Source: a virus. Taken from it: a stretch of 27,107 nt of DNA. Made by a program: the position numbers and the translations under genes. Below the pieces are notes generated by a model. It did not search any database. It was not told where the DNA came from and saw only the letters and a program-made list of their open reading frames with translations. The stretch is from IMG/VR virus record IMGVR_UViG_3300027762_000032, positions 1-27,107 of that record. One strand, 5' to 3'. Shown here piece after piece: positions 1,134 to 9,362 of this stretch. Position 1 is the first letter of the stretch; the number at the start of each line of letters is the position of its first letter.

Positions 1134-1284
1134 CATTGTAGCTTTTAGTAATCATATTTTCTTCATCTAAACTAATCAAAAGCCTTAAATATTCACTTGT
1201 ATTCAGTCCAAGTATACTTGCTTGTTTTTCTGCTTTATCTTTTAGTTCTTTTGATAATCTTATCATTATTGGTTTATTCACCAT
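1123..1284 (-). CDS. Small ribbon-helix-helix (Arc/CopG-like) DNA-binding protein
   Basis: 53 residues. The segment KPIMIRLSKELKDKAEKQAS followed by LGLNTSEYLRLLI fits an RHH fold: a basic beta strand (IMIRLS), then two helices separated by a turn. ATG 1284 is chosen because AAAGGAG lies 7-8 bases upstream; an upstream in-frame start would lie deep inside the ParB-like gene. Its first 11 bases overlap the end of that gene, so the two are translationally coupled. It is the last gene of the cassette. RHH proteins usually repress their own promoter, and a perfect inverted repeat sits in the cassette promoter at 3751-3772, which makes it the likely regulator (inference). Its 3' end lies in a 19-bp repeat. 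Confidence 0.75.
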   Translation of the reverse strand: MVNKPIMIRLSKELKDKAEKQASILGLNTSEYLRLLISLDEENMITKSYNVSK

Positions 1285-1801
1285 TTTGCAATCTCCTTTT
1301 TTCGTAATCTTCCCAACTTTTACTAAACTCAAAATTTGCAAACGCTTCCTTTAAACCTGTTATTTGTTTTAATCTTATTACTTCATCTAAATCCATACCA
1401 AGCTTTTTGCAAATAGATATATCTTCCCAACCTTGTTTCGTTAATTCAAGAACAATATCACTCATACTTCTTATTTTATGTGTTCCTCTTGCTCTATTAT
1501 GTCTTATTGTACTACCCATTCTTTCATCCAATGTTTTATCTATTACAACTATTGGTACTACATCACTTTTTAAATAATCTTTTAAAATTGTATATCTGTG
1601 GAAACCATCTACTACTATATAAACATCATTTTCTTTATCATAGTAACAAACTATTGGCATTGTTACACCATCTAATTCTATTGATAATTTTAACAATTTC
1701 ATTTCAGGTGTTGCAACTTTGTTTGGATTATAATCATTTGAAATAACCTTTTCAATTGGTACTAATTTAACTTCTAAACATGGAAATTTGATTTTTATCA
1801 T
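1274..1801 (-). CDS. ParB/Srx-fold N-terminal domain protein (IbrB-like)
   Basis: About 175 residues. The N-terminal half has the ParB/sulfiredoxin-type core: VPIEKVISNDYNPN, then a helix (MKLLKLSIELDG), then VVDGFHRYTIL, which stands where ParB proteins have GxxR/DGxHR. The C-terminal part (MSDIVLELTKQGW...ICKKLGMDLDEVIRL) looks like a small helix-turn-helix. There is no ParA in the window, so plasmid-style partition is unlikely. Instead it lies in an operon with a PAPS-reductase-like protein, the pairing seen in IbrA/IbrB of E. coli prophages. ATG 1801 has the better ribosome site (AAGGGTGAG); GTG 1810 is the alternative and overlaps the GNAT stop. Substrate unknown. Confidence 0.75.
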   Translation of the reverse strand: MIKIKFPCLEVKLVPIEKVISNDYNPNKVATPEMKLLKLSIELDGVTMPIVCYYDKENDVYIVVDGFHRYTILKDYLKSDVVPIVVIDKTLDERMGSTIRHNRARGTHKIRSMSDIVLELTKQGWEDISICKKLGMDLDEVIRLKQITGLKEAFANFEFSKSWEDYEKRRLQNGE

Positions 1802-1802
1802 A

Positions 1803-2207
1803 TTACTCACCCTTTCTCAAATAAAAGTATCTTCCATTTTGACGATATACTTCAAATCCTTTTTCAAACCAATACTTTTTTAAGTATTCTTCTTTTGTAA
1901 TTACCTCAATTGATTTATTTTTTTCTTCTGCATATCTTAACCTTTCTTCATTTATTTGTTTCCAAACACCTTTTTGTCTGTATTCATCTTCTACATAAGA
2001 TGATTCAAATACTATTTTATTTTTTAATTCATTTAATGAACCAAAACCAACTAACTTATTTGATTCATATACTAAAAACCATATATTTGTTTCTTTATTA
2101 CTCATATAAGGCATTATTTTTTTGTACTGTGGCTCTGCAAAATATTTACCCATAATAGAATAAAATTTTTTCTTATCGTAGTTACCACAAAACATTTTAA
2201 CTTCCAT
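1803..2207 (-). CDS. GNAT-family N-acetyltransferase
   Basis: 134 residues, the usual length of a single GNAT domain. LVGFGSLNELKNKIVFESSYV forms the central strands, followed by the acetyl-CoA pyrophosphate loop in VEDEYRQKGVWKQINEERL (an R/Q-x-x-G-x type motif) and the late strand/helix YLKKYWFEKGFEVYRQ. ATG 2207 is preceded by GGGGAG and overlaps the end of the PAPS-like gene by 11 bases, the same overlap length as between the ParB-like and RHH genes. The substrate cannot be read from the sequence. Its position between the IbrA-like and IbrB-like genes suggests that it acts with them, on a protein or small molecule. Confidence 0.8.
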   Translation of the reverse strand: MEVKMFCGNYDKKKFYSIMGKYFAEPQYKKIMPYMSNKETNIWFLVYESNKLVGFGSLNELKNKIVFESSYVEDEYRQKGVWKQINEERLRYAEEKNKSIEVITKEEYLKKYWFEKGFEVYRQNGRYFYLRKGE

Positions 2208-3483
2208 TTAATTCTCCCCTTTCCCATCTTTCTAAATCTTTATCATAATCACCATCACCAAGTATTTTTTTGTATTTTTCTTTTAGTAAATTTAACTTTT
2301 CGACATCTTTTTTTGTAGATGAAAAACTTAACCTTTTCATCCAAAAATCATTTTTTTCTAATGATCTTGCTATTCTTCTCCATGTTGGTTTTTTCCTGTC
2401 TGCTTCAACACCACTTTCATCAATATAGTCTTTATAATTTTCAACTTTTTGACCTCTTTTTTCTTCCCACCACTTCATAAATGTTTTTATCTTATTATAA
2501 TAATGTTCTTCTAATTCAGGAGCATATAGTCTAATACTTTCTAATAAATAAATCGTGTATTGTTCCCATGTCATATGTTCAGGCTTTTCTGATTTTATAT
2601 TTCCTAAAAGTGAAGTTCTTGCATATATGTTACCAAAGTTTACTCCTTGAACTCTATTTAAAACCTTTTCCCATGTTTCAGGTTCTAGTGATTTAAATTG
2701 GTCCAATCCGTTCCTTTGGTCATCACCATAAGGTTGGCATAATCTAGCTTCATGTATTGATAATCCATTTTTATACATCAATTCGTAAATTTCATTAAAG
2801 CTAAAATTTAATTTAAAAACAGCAGTCCATATATCTTCTGTCCTCCAATCATAAAGAGGAAAAAAATTATATACATCTATTGGTTTATTATTTATTTTAA
2901 CTTGTGTAGTCCAACCTTTTTCTTTATATCTGATTTTTGTGTCATTTATTATAGTTGTAAATCTGTTTAAACTTTCATCAGACCTTATACCTATTCCTGT
3001 TGCAATAGTTGAAGTGTGTTTTTTTGAATACCAATCAGCAAATTTAATTATAAATTCTTCAAATTCCATACCACATTTAAACCAATCAAAAGGACAATTT
3101 GATTCATTTATAACATCATCAGGCATATCTCTAACCCATTTTTCTTTATCTTTTTCATCCCAACATATCCACTTTGGTTGTAATATACTTACTGCATTTC
3201 TTAATGATATTGGCAAACAAATATGATAAAAATTATTTATACATTCTAACTTTTTTATTTCTTCTATATGTTCAATTGTGGCTTTGTATTGTGCTTCTAA
3301 ATCTATATATAAAATATCAAATATTTTGTTTTTAGATTTTGCTATATTATTTGCTAATTGAATCATAACAGAACTATCTTTGCCACCTGATACACTAAAA
3401 TAGATATGTTCAAATTCATCAAATATAAAATTTAGTCTTTCAATTGATGATTGTAATACATTTTTGTTGTTATAAATTTTCAT
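2197..3483 (-). CDS. PAPS reductase/sulfotransferase-like ATP pyrophosphatase (IbrA-like, DUF3440-type)
   Basis: 428 residues from ATG 3483. The PP-loop SGGKDSS lies at 32-38 and binds the ATP pyrophosphate in adenylating N-type ATP pyrophosphatases. It is followed by DLEAQY at the second strand and GIGIRSDESLNR in the middle, typical of PAPS-reductase relatives. The C-terminal region (ARLCQPYGDDQRNGLDQF, then GNIYA) matches the DUF3440-type tail of IbrA rather than assimilatory CysH. Relatives include DndC of DNA phosphorothioation, so sulfur or adenylate transfer to a macromolecule is possible but unproven. The start overlaps the preceding small gene by 14 bases; ATG 3489 is an alternative. 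The family call is firm, the reaction unknown. Confidence 0.85.
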   Translation of the reverse strand: MKIYNNKNVLQSSIERLNFIFDEFEHIYFSVSGGKDSSVMIQLANNIAKSKNKIFDILYIDLEAQYKATIEHIEEIKKLECINNFYHICLPISLRNAVSILQPKWICWDEKDKEKWVRDMPDDVINESNCPFDWFKCGMEFEEFIIKFADWYSKKHTSTIATGIGIRSDESLNRFTTIINDTKIRYKEKGWTTQVKINNKPIDVYNFFPLYDWRTEDIWTAVFKLNFSFNEIYELMYKNGLSIHEARLCQPYGDDQRNGLDQFKSLEPETWEKVLNRVQGVNFGNIYARTSLLGNIKSEKPEHMTWEQYTIYLLESIRLYAPELEEHYYNKIKTFMKWWEEKRGQKVENYKDYIDESGVEADRKKPTWRRIARSLEKNDFWMKRLSFSSTKKDVEKLNLLKEKYKKILGDGDYDKDLERWERGELNGS

Positions 3484-3709
3484 TGCCATCAATCCAATCT
3501 TTTATTTTATCATAGTCTTTATCTTTCGTTTTTTCTAACCATGATTTAAAACTATCTACTAGCCTTTCTTTTCTATCCAAACATTTTAACATTCTTGAAT
3601 CTAAACTGTCATATGCATATAAATCAATTATATGTACATTTTTATTTTGACCAATTATATTTACTCTACCTTCGTGACCACAACTATAAGTTCCGTAATA
3701 CCATGCCAT
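3470..3709 (-). CDS. Small conserved phage-type protein with N-terminal Cys/His segment
   Basis: 79 residues from ATG 3709, which has GGAGG eight bases upstream; a TTG five codons earlier overlaps that ribosome site and is unlikely. It begins MAWYYGTYSCGHEGRVNIIG, a pattern familiar from small phage proteins that end with CPEC-type cysteines. Here the later cysteine pair is missing and the tail is acidic and charged, so it may be a diverged version that cannot form a full zinc site. First gene of the cassette, directly behind its promoter. Function unknown. Confidence 0.65.
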   Translation of the reverse strand: MAWYYGTYSCGHEGRVNIIGQNKNVHIIDLYAYDSLDSRMLKCLDRKERLVDSFKSWLEKTKDKDYDKIKDWIDGNENL

Positions 3710-6485: not shown

Positions 6486-6532
6486 TTTGATACACCCCTT
6501 TTAATTTTTGTTTTTTCACTCCATTATGATGT

Positions 6533-6891
6533 AATCGTTTAATTTGGTTCATTCTCCATATTTTTTAAGTCAAAATCTTTGGTTCAATCCACCTACTTAT
6601 AAATCAAATACTGTGGTTCATTCTTTGATATTGAAAATCCCTAAATTTGGTTCATTCTATATCCTTTTTATCTTTTCCCGTGGTTCATTCATGTTTATAA
6701 TATTTATTACACTTTGTTCATTCATATGTATCTTAGTCACTTAATACGGTTCACTCATAGTCCTTTTGATTCTCATAATATGTTTCATTCTTGTAATATT
6801 AGTGTCCTTATTCTTAATTCATTTATCTCCTATTAATTCAATATCTTTAATTCATTCTCTATTAATAATCTTCGTTTGGTATGATTCATTC
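6533..6891. repeat. Repeat array A: 11 copies of the GGTTCATTC box at ~33.7-bp period
   Basis: Boxes begin at 6546, 6581, 6615, 6649, 6682, 6715, 6748, 6782, 6816, 6849 and 6883. Four are exact; the rest differ by one to three bases. Ten of the eleven have TC exactly nine bases before the box. The last box overlaps the stop of the sigma-like gene, and the array fills the whole 404-base gap to the thermonuclease gene. No coding frame survives because the steps alternate between 33, 34 and 35. Copies nearest the sigma-like gene are the most degenerate. Confidence 0.95.
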
Positions 6892-7573
6892 ACTTTTTAA
6901 AATAGTCACCTATAATACTCCACTCATTGAAATCTTCATTTTTTCTGTCTTCCTGGACATAATCACTTAACAGTCCAGTAAGTTTTTTTAAGGCACATTG
7001 CTTTATAAAGCTGACATTGCTAATTTTCATTTTGTTCTTATCTGCAATTTCTTTTATTGATAAATTCTCAATACAGCTTTCAACAATTACTGTTAATTCA
7101 ATCGGTGTAAGTTCATTTATTGCATTTTCAAAGTCCATTTTTGACACATATTTATTAATATCTATTTTTTTATCTTCAAGAAAAATTGCAAATGTGTCAG
7201 TTTCTTCATTTATAGTTTTGTCGTATGAAAATACACCCTTTCTTTTTTTGTAATCTTTTTGCATGTAGTACATTAATTTATATTTAATGTTGATGTATAA
7301 ATAAGTTGTAAATGTTTCATAGGTTTCTTTATTCAATTTATTTAGTGTTTTTATAACTATTTCAATTCCACAACTTATTAAATCATCAAGCTGATCTGGG
7401 TAATGGTATATGTGTTTTCTAGCTATATATATAATCAGGTACACGCTCCTGGCCACAAATTCATCTTTAGCCTGTTGGTCACCTGCTAGGATTTTGTCAT
7501 AATAGGGTATAAGTTCATCTTTTTGCAATGAAGTAAGTCCATTTTCTTTTAATGTTCTAATTAATTCTGTCAT
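6890..7573 (-). CDS. Sigma-70-family-like factor
   Basis: 227 residues. Region 2-like helix: YPDQLDDLISCGIEIVIKTL at ~58-77, preceded by ARSVYLIIYIARKHI. Region 4-like HTH: INELTPIELTVIVESCIENL, then SIKEIADKNKMKISNVSFIK at ~155-193. This is the architecture of short sigma factors and of phage sigma-like regulators. ATG 7573 has GAGG seven bases upstream. The gene sits between repeat arrays A and B; the array boxes touch its stop codon and come close to its ribosome site. It may redirect host RNA polymerase to phage promoters; whether it recognises the boxes is untested. Confidence 0.75.
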   Translation of the reverse strand: MTELIRTLKENGLTSLQKDELIPYYDKILAGDQQAKDEFVARSVYLIIYIARKHIYHYPDQLDDLISCGIEIVIKTLNKLNKETYETFTTYLYINIKYKLMYYMQKDYKKRKGVFSYDKTINEETDTFAIFLEDKKIDINKYVSKMDFENAINELTPIELTVIVESCIENLSIKEIADKNKMKISNVSFIKQCALKKLTGLLSDYVQEDRKNEDFNEWSIIGDYFKK

Positions 7574-7600
7574 GAAAATACCTCGCTCATAAATTTCTGT

Positions 7601-8497
7601 AATCTGTAAACTTGGCTCATTCCAACATAATTAAATTCTTTTTGTTTGTTTCATTTAATTGTTATGGCCGTCACAATATTTGGTTCAATCTTTCTTTTTT
7701 TTAAATCACATAGGATGGTTCATTCTTTTGTTTTTTATTCATCTTAATTGGTTCTATCCCTACTATTACGTAAATCATTAATTATGAATCATTCGCAGTA
7801 TTTATTAATCTTCCTCATTAATTCAATCTAATATAATTTAGTCATAGGCCTAGATTCATTCGTATGCCCTTTTGTTTCATCATCCTTGGTTCAATCGATA
7901 TATAATTACTCCCACATCATGGCTCATTCATCGGCTATTTAATCTGAATAGTTGATTCATTCTGTAATTATTAAATCTTTTGCAGTGGTTCATTCCTTCC
8001 CGCTTCAAATCATATTCCTTGGTTCAATCTTAAATATTAACAATCTTGCACCTGTGGTTCATTCGCTCAATTTGTTTTCAATTTCTTTGGTTCAATCCTT
8101 TTATATTTTTTCAATTACATTGGTTCATTCCTATACTATTTTCTTCAGTGGCTTCGGCTCATTCAATCTTCTTTAAATCCCATGATCTGGTTCATTCAAT
8201 TCCTATTTTTTCAATTACATTGGTTCATTCAAGTGTCGTGTTTATCTTTTGCCCTGGTTCATTCAGACATATTTACATCTCGCATCATGATTCATTCATG
8301 CTTTTTGCTTTTCAATTTTCATGGTTCATTCCATTATTTTTTAATCTTTGACTATGGTTCATTCTAATTACGTTTGAATCCAACCTTCTGATTCAATCCT
8401 TTTATTTTTATTCACTTTAAGTGGTTCATTCCAGATTCATAATTTCATGGTTTATGGTTCATTCACATTTCCTTATCTCATGTGATTTGATTCATTT
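7601..8497. repeat. Repeat array B: 27 copies of the GGTTCATTC box at ~33.7-bp period
   Basis: Boxes begin at 7614, 7648, 7682, 7717, 7750, 7786, 7820, 7853, 7888, 7921, 7954, 7987, 8021, 8056, 8089, 8122, 8156, 8189, 8222, 8256, 8289, 8323, 8356, 8390, 8423, 8456 and 8489. Eleven are exact GGTTCATTC and four are GGTTCAATC. Twenty-six have TC exactly nine bases before the box; 8056 has ten. Steps are 33-36. The last box overlaps the stop codon of the Transposase_20-domain gene, so the array fills the whole ~900-base gap. Bases 8104-8130 and 8204-8230 are identical, evidence of internal duplication by three units. Confidence 0.97.
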
Positions 8498-9362
8498 ATA
8501 CTACTTTTTTCATAAATTCATTAGCTTTTTTGAACACGTCATAAAACCAACCTTTTTCAACAGGTTCTTTAATTAATTCTGGCCTTTCTATCTTATGAAC
8601 ATGCCCTAAATGTGCTATGACATAAGGTGCTGGGGCAGGTTTTTTGTAATGCCATTCATACCAATATTCATGTAAGTGTGACAAAAACATTTTCACTGCA
8701 AATCTAGCAGCTCTTGCATTGATGTGTGCAGGTGGAAGCTTGCCAATACTGTAGTATTTATATGCTTCTGTATTCTTGCCCACTTGACTTTTTCTCACTT
8801 CTGCCAAATCTTTAAATGCTAATAGTTCATTTTGTTCAGTTTCCCATTCCTTTCTTTCCCTATACAACCGACCATAAAAGCTGTTTTCTTTATTGCTGTT
8901 TTTTATAAAACCTTGTCCAGCTTGCCAACAAATAGTCTTAAGCCTTGCATTCCATGGCCTTCTTTGTCCTTTTTCCCACTTAATGCTACTAACTAATCCA
9001 GCAAAGCTGTAAATGTGTCCTACTGTTGGTGCTTTTTCTATGTCTATGTGTGCCAACAAAGCTGCACTTACAACTGGTCCAATTCCTAACTGTTGATTCA
9101 TCCATTGGCCAACTGGATGATTAAGTGTGTAGTATTGCAAAATCTTTTTTATTTCTTTTTCAACTACATCAAATTGGCTTTCGTACCAGTTGAATAGTTC
9201 ATGTGGTTCTTTAGTTTTTGACATCATGTTTCTTTGGTTCCCTGACCTTACCCTTTGCTGTTGGATGGTGTAATAGTTATCAATAATCAGCCTTAATTCA
9301 TCTACATCAAGTGTTAGTGCTGCTTTTTTTATGTCTTTACTTAGCCTTTCAACAGTTTCCAT
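8496..9362 (-). CDS. Transposase_20 (IS110 C-terminal)-domain protein without RuvC domain
   Basis: 288 residues. The first ~85 are helical and charged, like the coiled-coil linker of IS110 transposases. GIGPVVSAALLAHI (93-106) and YSFAGLVSS (118-126) are the helix-hairpin-helix and following segment of Transposase_20; RRPWNARLKTICWQAG aligns with its next helix. The N-terminal DEDD RuvC-like domain is absent. Where IS110 enzymes have the catalytic serine (typically SSGG or SG after AGLVP), this protein reads IKWEKG, so the serine appears lost. No element ends flank it, so it is a phage gene rather than an insertion sequence, perhaps kept for DNA or RNA binding. ATG 9362 follows GGGGGG. It lies immediately upstream of array B in the direction of transcription. 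Confidence 0.75.
   Translation of the reverse strand: METVERLSKDIKKAALTLDVDELRLIIDNYYTIQQQRVRSGNQRNMMSKTKEPHELFNWYESQFDVVEKEIKKILQYYTLNHPVGQWMNQQLGIGPVVSAALLAHIDIEKAPTVGHIYSFAGLVSSIKWEKGQRRPWNARLKTICWQAGQGFIKNSNKENSFYGRLYRERKEWETEQNELLAFKDLAEVRKSQVGKNTEAYKYYSIGKLPPAHINARAARFAVKMFLSHLHEYWYEWHYKKPAPAPYVIAHLGHVHKIERPELIKEPVEKGWFYDVFKKANEFMKKVV

What the first reader, a model, noticed from the sequence alone, without database searches (positions are those of the whole stretch)
6533..8497. Two large noncoding arrays of a 9-bp box at ~33.7-bp period around a sigma-like gene
I located 38 boxes by eye (11 in array A, 27 in array B) with consensus GGTTCATTC, 15 of them exact, at steps of 33-36 bp over about 1.25 kb. 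The mean step is 33.7 in both arrays although they are separated by a gene. The sequences between boxes differ from unit to unit, so this is neither a simple satellite nor a CRISPR. In compact phage DNA, keeping this much noncoding sequence implies a function: a multi-site scaffold for a protein, an origin or centromere-like element, a decoy for a host regulator, or an RNA carrying ~38 GAAUGAACC elements on the sense strand. I know of no described system of this form.
Basis: seen in the sequence. Interest (0 to 1): 0.9.

Follow-up and report, generated by a model that had tools for sequence, protein, structure and literature searches.

The report
Phage guide-RNA array with TasA partner
The repeats are a long array of small guide RNAs in a phage, of the recently described TIGR-Tas kind, next to the gene for the protein that carries those guides to matching DNA; it is an unusual short-looped version of a known system, and how such nuclease-less versions act in nature is still open.

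Summary
GGTTCATTC boxes lie in two arrays (6516-6891 and 7582-8497) at 33-36 nt steps, far beyond shuffled controls. Read on the minus (sense) strand they are the edge repeats (GAATGAACCA) of a TIGR array: edge, 8-nt spacer A, loop repeat, 8-nt spacer B, in 38 units (27+11).

The adjacent 288-aa "Transposase_20" protein is a Tas protein. It matches NCBIfam TIGR_Tas at E=7e-55, and its model matches TasH/TasR structures at Z 20/18.5. It lacks the nuclease domain, so it is a TasA.

Of 98 relatives examined, 90 carry such an array, 85 of them with a 36-nt unit. The window's 33-35-nt unit is the shortest seen, and its loop has lost the box-C "CA" end (5/36 units) that 80 of 82 relative arrays keep. 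It is therefore a new variant of a published system (Faure et al. 2025), not an undescribed one. The sigma-like gene is not part of the system.

Targets of this array were not found. One lead comes from a relative: an Acidobacteriaceae prophage array has an exact 16/16 tandem-spacer match in the excisionase-like gene of another prophage in the same chromosome. It is suggestive, not proven.

The parts
8496..9362 (-). TasA gene (288 aa): Nop/coiled-coil Tas protein without a nuclease domain
   Evidence: NCBIfam NF052498 TIGR_Tas E=7e-55, 186 bits vs cut-off 100; PDB TasR 9mty E=1.6e-11 and TasH 21kl E=7e-8; AF2 model pLDDT 81.5 aligned to TasH 9w04 Z=20 over residues 16-265 and TasR 9mty Z=18.5 over 21-264; nuclease parts of those proteins are not covered
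7582..8497 (-). TIGR array B, 27 units, directly downstream of tasA; first edge repeat overlaps the tasA stop codon, last (3'-truncated) edge GAGCGAG runs into the Shine-Dalgarno of the sigma-like gene
   Evidence: unit parsing, ends read from sequence; shuffle control
6516..6891 (-). TIGR array A, 11 units, downstream of the sigma-like gene; first edge overlaps that gene's stop codon, ends with 3'-truncated edge GAGTGA upstream of the SNase gene
   Evidence: unit parsing, ends read from sequence
8456..8464 (-). example of an edge repeat (sense GAATGAACC followed by A); 36 parsed edges are on average 90% identical to GAATGAACCA
6890..7573 (-). sigma-70 family protein, 227 aa, between the two arrays; neighbour, not shown to belong to the system
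   Evidence: TIGR02937 E=3e-15, above its cut-off; no homologue near Tas in the 98 relative loci

Best explanation
Two TIGR arrays and a nuclease-less Tas protein (TasA) form one co-directional phage gene block on the minus strand: tasA, array B, sigma-like gene, array A, SNase gene. The arrays are probably transcribed with their neighbours and cut inside the edge repeats into about 38 tigRNAs of 33-35 nt. [quoted passage not shown] Without a nuclease the complex would bind and bend DNA rather than cut it. The most likely use is silencing genes (replication or early genes) of competing phages or other mobile elements. Shown here: array anatomy, Tas membership, absence of a nuclease domain, conservation of the array-gene pairing, no self-targets above chance. 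Inferred from the published system: transcription, processing, RNA binding, tandem targeting. Inferred more weakly: that the targets are competing mobile elements.
For: Tas membership by curated HMM, by PDB sequence hits (profile E=5e-35 to TasR, 3e-22 to TasH) and by fold. Unit anatomy edge-8-loop-8 matches the dual-repeat layout of Faure et al.. 90 of 98 relatives carry a parsed array, with unit 36 nt in 85. The Tas of Salicola phage CGphi29, named in the paper as the TasH example, and its array were re-found independently. An array with an 8-nt loop exists in a relative (L133, 34-nt unit). No self-target enrichment, so targets lie in trans. In a relative (Acidobacteriaceae KBS 96 prophage, 6 units), tigRNA2 matches 16/16 with no gap inside an HTH_17/excisionase-like gene of a second prophage in the same chromosome. 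The same element is the best of 196 host windows for the whole six-guide set.
Against: No expression, processing or binding data exist for this locus. The loop repeat is very degenerate and lacks the box-C C in 31 of 36 units, against a near-universal rule in relatives, so loading may be altered or the array decaying. No terminator was found, unlike typical arrays. No target of this array is known. 1,178 distinct tigRNAs showed no exact-match enrichment in 1.6 Mb of relatives' DNA. The KBS 96 match has a chance expectation of about 0.02 (no gap) to 0.06 (gap 0-2), and a second host (L065) tested with 4 patterns gave none.
Confidence: 0.85

Rival explanations
1. The locus is a decaying TIGR array: the edge repeats persist but the loop repeats have lost box C, so most units no longer make working guides.
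For: Loop ends in CA in 5/36 units while edges do in 29/36; 79 of 82 relative arrays end both repeats in the same two nucleotides. Unit length varies 33-36. Loop identity to its own consensus is 0.66-0.76, in the lowest part of the range seen in relatives.
Against: TasA is intact and keeps 77 of 90 conserved columns. Edges are 90% identical to consensus over 36 units, the GA start of the loop is kept in 34/36, and the 8-nt spacer A length is nearly constant: patchy decay would not spare these.
Confidence: 0.12
2. TasA with its tigRNAs acts on the phage's own genome or integration sites, as a regulator or recombination aid (a role suggested for TasA in the 2025 paper).
For: TasA lacks a nuclease; the array is co-directional with early/replication genes and a sigma-like gene; the solved TasR complex bends DNA about 180 degrees.
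Against: Own-contig matches are not above mispaired controls: 11 vs 7.7 expected at 14/16 or better in the window, and no excess in nine relatives. The window is a fragment, so a missing part could hold targets.
Confidence: 0.12
3. The boxes are double-stranded DNA sites (iterons, centromere or decoy) for a phage or host protein.
For: Regular 33-34-bp spacing, close to three helical turns; location near replication genes.
Against: There is a second repeat at fixed 8-nt offset, spacers differ between units, relatives have a 36-nt period and other repeat sequences, and the array co-occurs with a Tas gene in 90 of 98 loci. In relatives the box sequence changes while the dual-repeat layout stays.
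Confidence: 0.02

Closest known systems
TIGR-TasA, dual-repeat type (Flavonifractor plautii FpTIGR and other solo-Nop loci; Faure et al. 2025, PMC12045711)
   Same: Solo Nop-domain Tas gene beside a dual-repeat array; edge repeat ending in CCA; two short spacers per unit; array downstream of the gene on the same strand; phage location; 3'-truncated terminal edge.
   Different: Unit 33-35 nt instead of 36; loop repeat shortened to 7-9 nt and without box C in most units; two subarrays separated by a sigma-like gene, 38 units in all (paper: most often 5-15); no terminator found.
TIGR-TasH of Salicola phage CGphi29 (SpTIGR)
   Same: Tas core fold (Z about 20) and 16-nt total spacer length per unit.
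   Different: SpTasH has an N-terminal HNH nuclease that the window protein lacks; 36-nt unit with symmetric box C in edge and loop.
TIGR array of IMG/VR contig 3300035187_001612 (L133, found here)
   Same: Shortened 8-nt loop (GAACATCA), 34-nt unit.
   Different: Its loop keeps the CA box C; repeats are much less degenerate.
IS110/IS621 bridge-RNA recombinases
   Same: Homologous Nop-like domain (Z about 13.6); source of the Transposase_20 label.
   Different: No DEDD transposase domain, no transposon ends, multi-unit array instead of a single bridge RNA.
CRISPR arrays
   Same: Conserved repeats separated by variable spacers.
   Different: Short alternating dual repeats, 8-nt split spacers, no Cas genes nearby.

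Membership tests
TIGR-Tas | Tas protein with the Nop-like RNA-binding domain and coiled coil of the Tas family | tested here: met
   NF052498 E=7e-55; TasR/TasH profile hits; fold Z 18.5-20
TIGR-Tas | Adjacent array of two distinct short repeats alternating with about 8-12-nt variable spacers | tested here: met
   Edge GAATGAACCA, 8-nt spacer A, loop GA(N)A, 8-nt spacer B
[quoted passage not shown]
   Box D-like GA is shared (33/36 edges, 34/36 loops); box C is not: CA in 29/36 edges but 5/36 loops, vs identical ends in 79/82 relative arrays. The paper says 'almost always', so this is a typical rather than a strictly defining feature; the claim is therefore 'variant'
TIGR-Tas | 36-nt unit giving 36-nt tigRNA | tested here: not met
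   33-35 nt, with a single 36-nt unit; a relative with 34-nt unit exists (L133), so period is not strictly defining
TIGR-Tas | Array ends in a 3'-truncated edge repeat, usually followed by a terminator | tested here: inconclusive
   Truncated edges present at both array ends (sequence); no terminator found by the scan
TIGR-Tas | Array RNA processed into tigRNAs bound by Tas, RNA-guided DNA binding | not testable with these tools
   Needs RNA-seq and binding assays
TasA subtype | No HNH or RuvC nuclease domain | tested here: met
   288 aa; no nuclease family in Pfam; TasH and TasR residues aligned start at 64 and 112, after their nuclease parts
IS110 transposase | N-terminal DEDD (RuvC-like) transposase domain plus Transposase_20 | tested here: not met
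   Only a sub-threshold Transposase_20 hit; NF033542 19 bits vs cut-off 140
CRISPR-Cas | cas genes beside the array | tested here: not met
   Eight genes at and around the arrays (5.5-12.3 kb) searched in Pfam, none Cas-like

The most novel reading that the evidence does not exclude
This is a short-loop, box-C-asymmetric TIGR subtype whose TasA reads a guide in which the loop repeat no longer mirrors the edge repeat, and TasA arrays of this family are RNA-guided silencers of rival prophages: they aim several tandem-spacer guides at the excisionase-replication region of a related phage sharing the host, as the KBS 96 pair suggests.
Probability: 0.3. Interest if true: 0.8.

Novelty: new variant of a known kind. 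Interest (0 to 1): 0.5.

Why it matters
TIGR-Tas was described in 2025, with the function of nuclease-less TasA and the natural targets of all TIGR arrays listed as open questions. This locus and its relatives give a comparative set (about 100 loci, about 1,200 distinct guides). They include a natural test of how much of the loop repeat a Tas dimer needs, and one concrete, testable candidate target pair (two prophages in one Acidobacteriaceae strain).

Tried and rejected
Search for the same edge-repeat pair in IMG/VR: 5 hits; none encodes Tas by tblastn, none shows more than two boxes in phase, and the two read in sequence (L004, L005) look like short local duplications. Single-sequence relative search in IMG/VR and a two-sequence search of bacterial genomes gave nothing; other alignment queries worked. 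Own-genome targets: none above mispaired controls. Guides against 1.6 Mb of relatives' DNA: no excess of 15/16 or 16/16 matches. Exact-target search in IMG/VR for one guide gave 33 hits, none homologous to the KBS 96 target gene, i.e. chance level. Relatives of the KBS 96 replication-type protein in IMG/VR: none. Host L065: four patterns, no hit. Rfam: no match in the window. Link of the sigma-like gene to Tas: no homologue near Tas in the 98 relatives. CRISPR, satellite, iteron and decoy readings rejected on anatomy.

Full report
OBSERVATION. The window is a 27,107-base IMG/VR virus record. Fifteen exact GGTTCATTC boxes occur, all on the + strand from 6546 to 8456. With up to one mismatch there are 9 boxes in array A and 21 in array B, 24 of the 30 with a neighbour 32-36 nt downstream. 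1000 dinucleotide-preserving shuffles gave means of 0.17 and 0.56 boxes and at most one such step. Autocorrelation peaks at 33 nt (B) and 34 nt (A).

ANATOMY. All genes around the arrays run on the minus strand, and so do the units. In the sense direction a unit is: edge repeat GAATGAACCA, 8-nt variable spacer A, loop repeat starting GA and ending A (7 nt in 18 units, 8 in 13, 9 in 4, 10 in one), 8-nt variable spacer B. Most of the length variation (33-36 nt) sits in the loop. 36 full units were parsed. Each array has one further unit that ends in a 3'-truncated edge repeat: GAGCGAG at 7588-7582, fused to the Shine-Dalgarno of the sigma-like gene, and GAGTGA at 6521-6516 (sequence printed). 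So there are 38 units, 27 in B and 11 in A. The first edge of each array overlaps the stop codon of the gene before it (tasA, sigma-like). No intrinsic terminator was found.

THE PROTEIN. The 288-aa product of 8496-9362 has only a sub-threshold Transposase_20 hit in Pfam. It matches the curated NCBIfam model TIGR_Tas_endo at E=7e-55, 186 bits against a cut-off of 100. It also matches the solved sequences of TasR (9mty, E=1.6e-11) and TasH (21kl, E=7e-8); with a family profile these become 5e-35 and 3e-22. An AlphaFold2 model (pLDDT 81.5) aligns with TasH at Z=20 over residues 16-265, with TasR at Z=18.5 over 21-264, and with IS621 at Z=13.6. The HNH and RuvC parts of those proteins have no counterpart, so this is a TasA in the terms of Faure et al. 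(PMC12045711). The NCBI name "endonuclease" does not fit it.

RELATIVES. Alignment queries found 12 virus loci, 7 loci on bacterial contigs and 224 virus loci of which 80 were kept; 98 loci were analysed. A regular array was parsed in 90 of them. Its median unit is 36 nt in 85, and otherwise 35 (3), 37 (1) and 34 (1). The tblastn search also found two phages with Tas in annotated records, Microcystis phage Mvi-JY20 and Salicola phage CGphi29, and both carry visible arrays. The paper names CGphi29 as its TasH example.

WHAT IS UNUSUAL HERE. The window's unit is the shortest seen. The nearest case is L133, whose 34-nt unit has the 8-nt loop GAACATCA. In 80 of 82 relative arrays the next-to-last loop base is C in most units (median over arrays 100%), and in 79 of 82 the edge and loop consensus end in the same two bases. 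L012 shows this well: it has changed both ends to TG. In the window 29 of 36 edges end in CA but only 5 of 36 loops do (22 end in AA). The symmetric Tas dimer is thought to read both repeats in the same way, so this is a real departure from the described pattern. TasA differs from its relatives at 13 otherwise conserved columns. Whether that is compensation is unknown.

HOW IT MOST LIKELY WORKS. Transcription, cutting within edge repeats, guide loading and tandem-spacer targeting are inferred from the experiments in PMC12045711. From the published cut geometry I infer that a target strand reads spacer A followed by the reverse complement of spacer B, with a gap of 0-2. Without a nuclease the complex should bind and block.

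TARGETS. Own contigs show no excess of matches over re-paired spacers in the window (11 vs 7.7 expected at 14/16 or better) or in nine relatives. 1,178 distinct tigRNAs show no excess of 15/16 or 16/16 matches in 1.6 Mb of relatives' DNA. So the targets are likely in trans and mostly outside what is held here.

ONE LEAD FROM A RELATIVE. Acidobacteriaceae bacterium KBS 96 carries a prophage with TasA and a clean 6-unit array (L064:8777-8993). All six guides were searched in its genome record. One, TAAAAGCA/TTCGATTC, matches 16/16 without gap at G013:C1:6329962-6329977; the reversed-pattern control found nothing. The site lies near the start of the reading frame of an 86-aa HTH_17 protein (phrog_66 excisionase/regulator, E=3e-6). 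That gene belongs to another prophage-like element with an integrase, an HTH_3 repressor, a replication-type protein (weak PHROGs hits only) and a prohead protease. Two further guides have their best gap-free matches in the adjacent replication-type gene: 14/16 with both mismatches at the spacer edge, and 13/16. That protein's C-terminus is 62% identical to one in the TIGR-bearing prophage, whose own DNA differs at these sites in a rough alignment. Chance expectation for an exact hit is about 0.019 without gap, or 0.056 with gaps 0-2 (my calculation for six guides and 6.7 Mb). The element was chosen because of the first hit, so the fair test is the other five guides. It ranks first of 196 host windows (sum 64, next 62), and 3 of 120 pairings (the true one included) do at least as well. 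A second host (L065) tested with four patterns gave nothing. I rate this suggestive only.

VERDICT. A real feature, correctly seen; a TIGR-TasA locus, so not categorically new; but a short-loop, box-C-asymmetric variant with a large split array. The sigma-like gene is a bystander as far as comparison shows.

Noticed in passing
L064 (KBS 96) array 8777-8993 and G013:C1:6329962-6329977 (L151:7963-7978): Exact 16/16 tandem-spacer match of a prophage TIGR guide inside an excisionase-like gene of a second prophage-like element in the same chromosome; the guide set as a whole also matches this element best among 196 host windows. Candidate natural TasA target.
   Followed up: partly
91 parsed TIGR arrays; in the window the units at boxes 8122 and 8222: Within arrays, 32 unit pairs share exactly one 8-nt spacer (16 A-only, 16 B-only) where about 0.5 would be expected, while only 6 share both. 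Half-units seem to be duplicated or re-partnered; relevant to how TIGR arrays grow.
   Followed up: partly
L013:4429-4505 and L018:7250-7326: Two phages with near-identical TasA have arrays in which a unit differs in both spacers while the flanking repeats and neighbouring units are kept; L015/L016 differ by one extra unit.
   Followed up: partly
L018:4315-6447: The TasA-family gene looks interrupted by an intein-like insert (711 aa; the near-identical L013 protein is 274 aa) at the conserved Cys-Trp (window C145).
   Followed up: no
L012:3700-5900 and 7140-7800: Very large degenerate TIGR arrays on both sides of Tas (more than 60 units) in which box C has changed to TG in both edge and loop repeats.
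   Followed up: partly
window 1274-3492 (-): ParB-like 178-aa gene and a DUF3440/PAPS-reductase-type gene (IbrB/IbrA-like pair) with an acetyltransferase-like gene between them, downstream in the same direction. The paper notes occasional TasA-ParB operons, but here several kb and several genes separate them from tasA.
   Followed up: no
L009:5878-7311: A TasA relative of 477 aa with a long extra C-terminal part in a 247-kb phage contig, beside a 36-nt array (AATGAATCA / ATAGTATCA).
   Followed up: no
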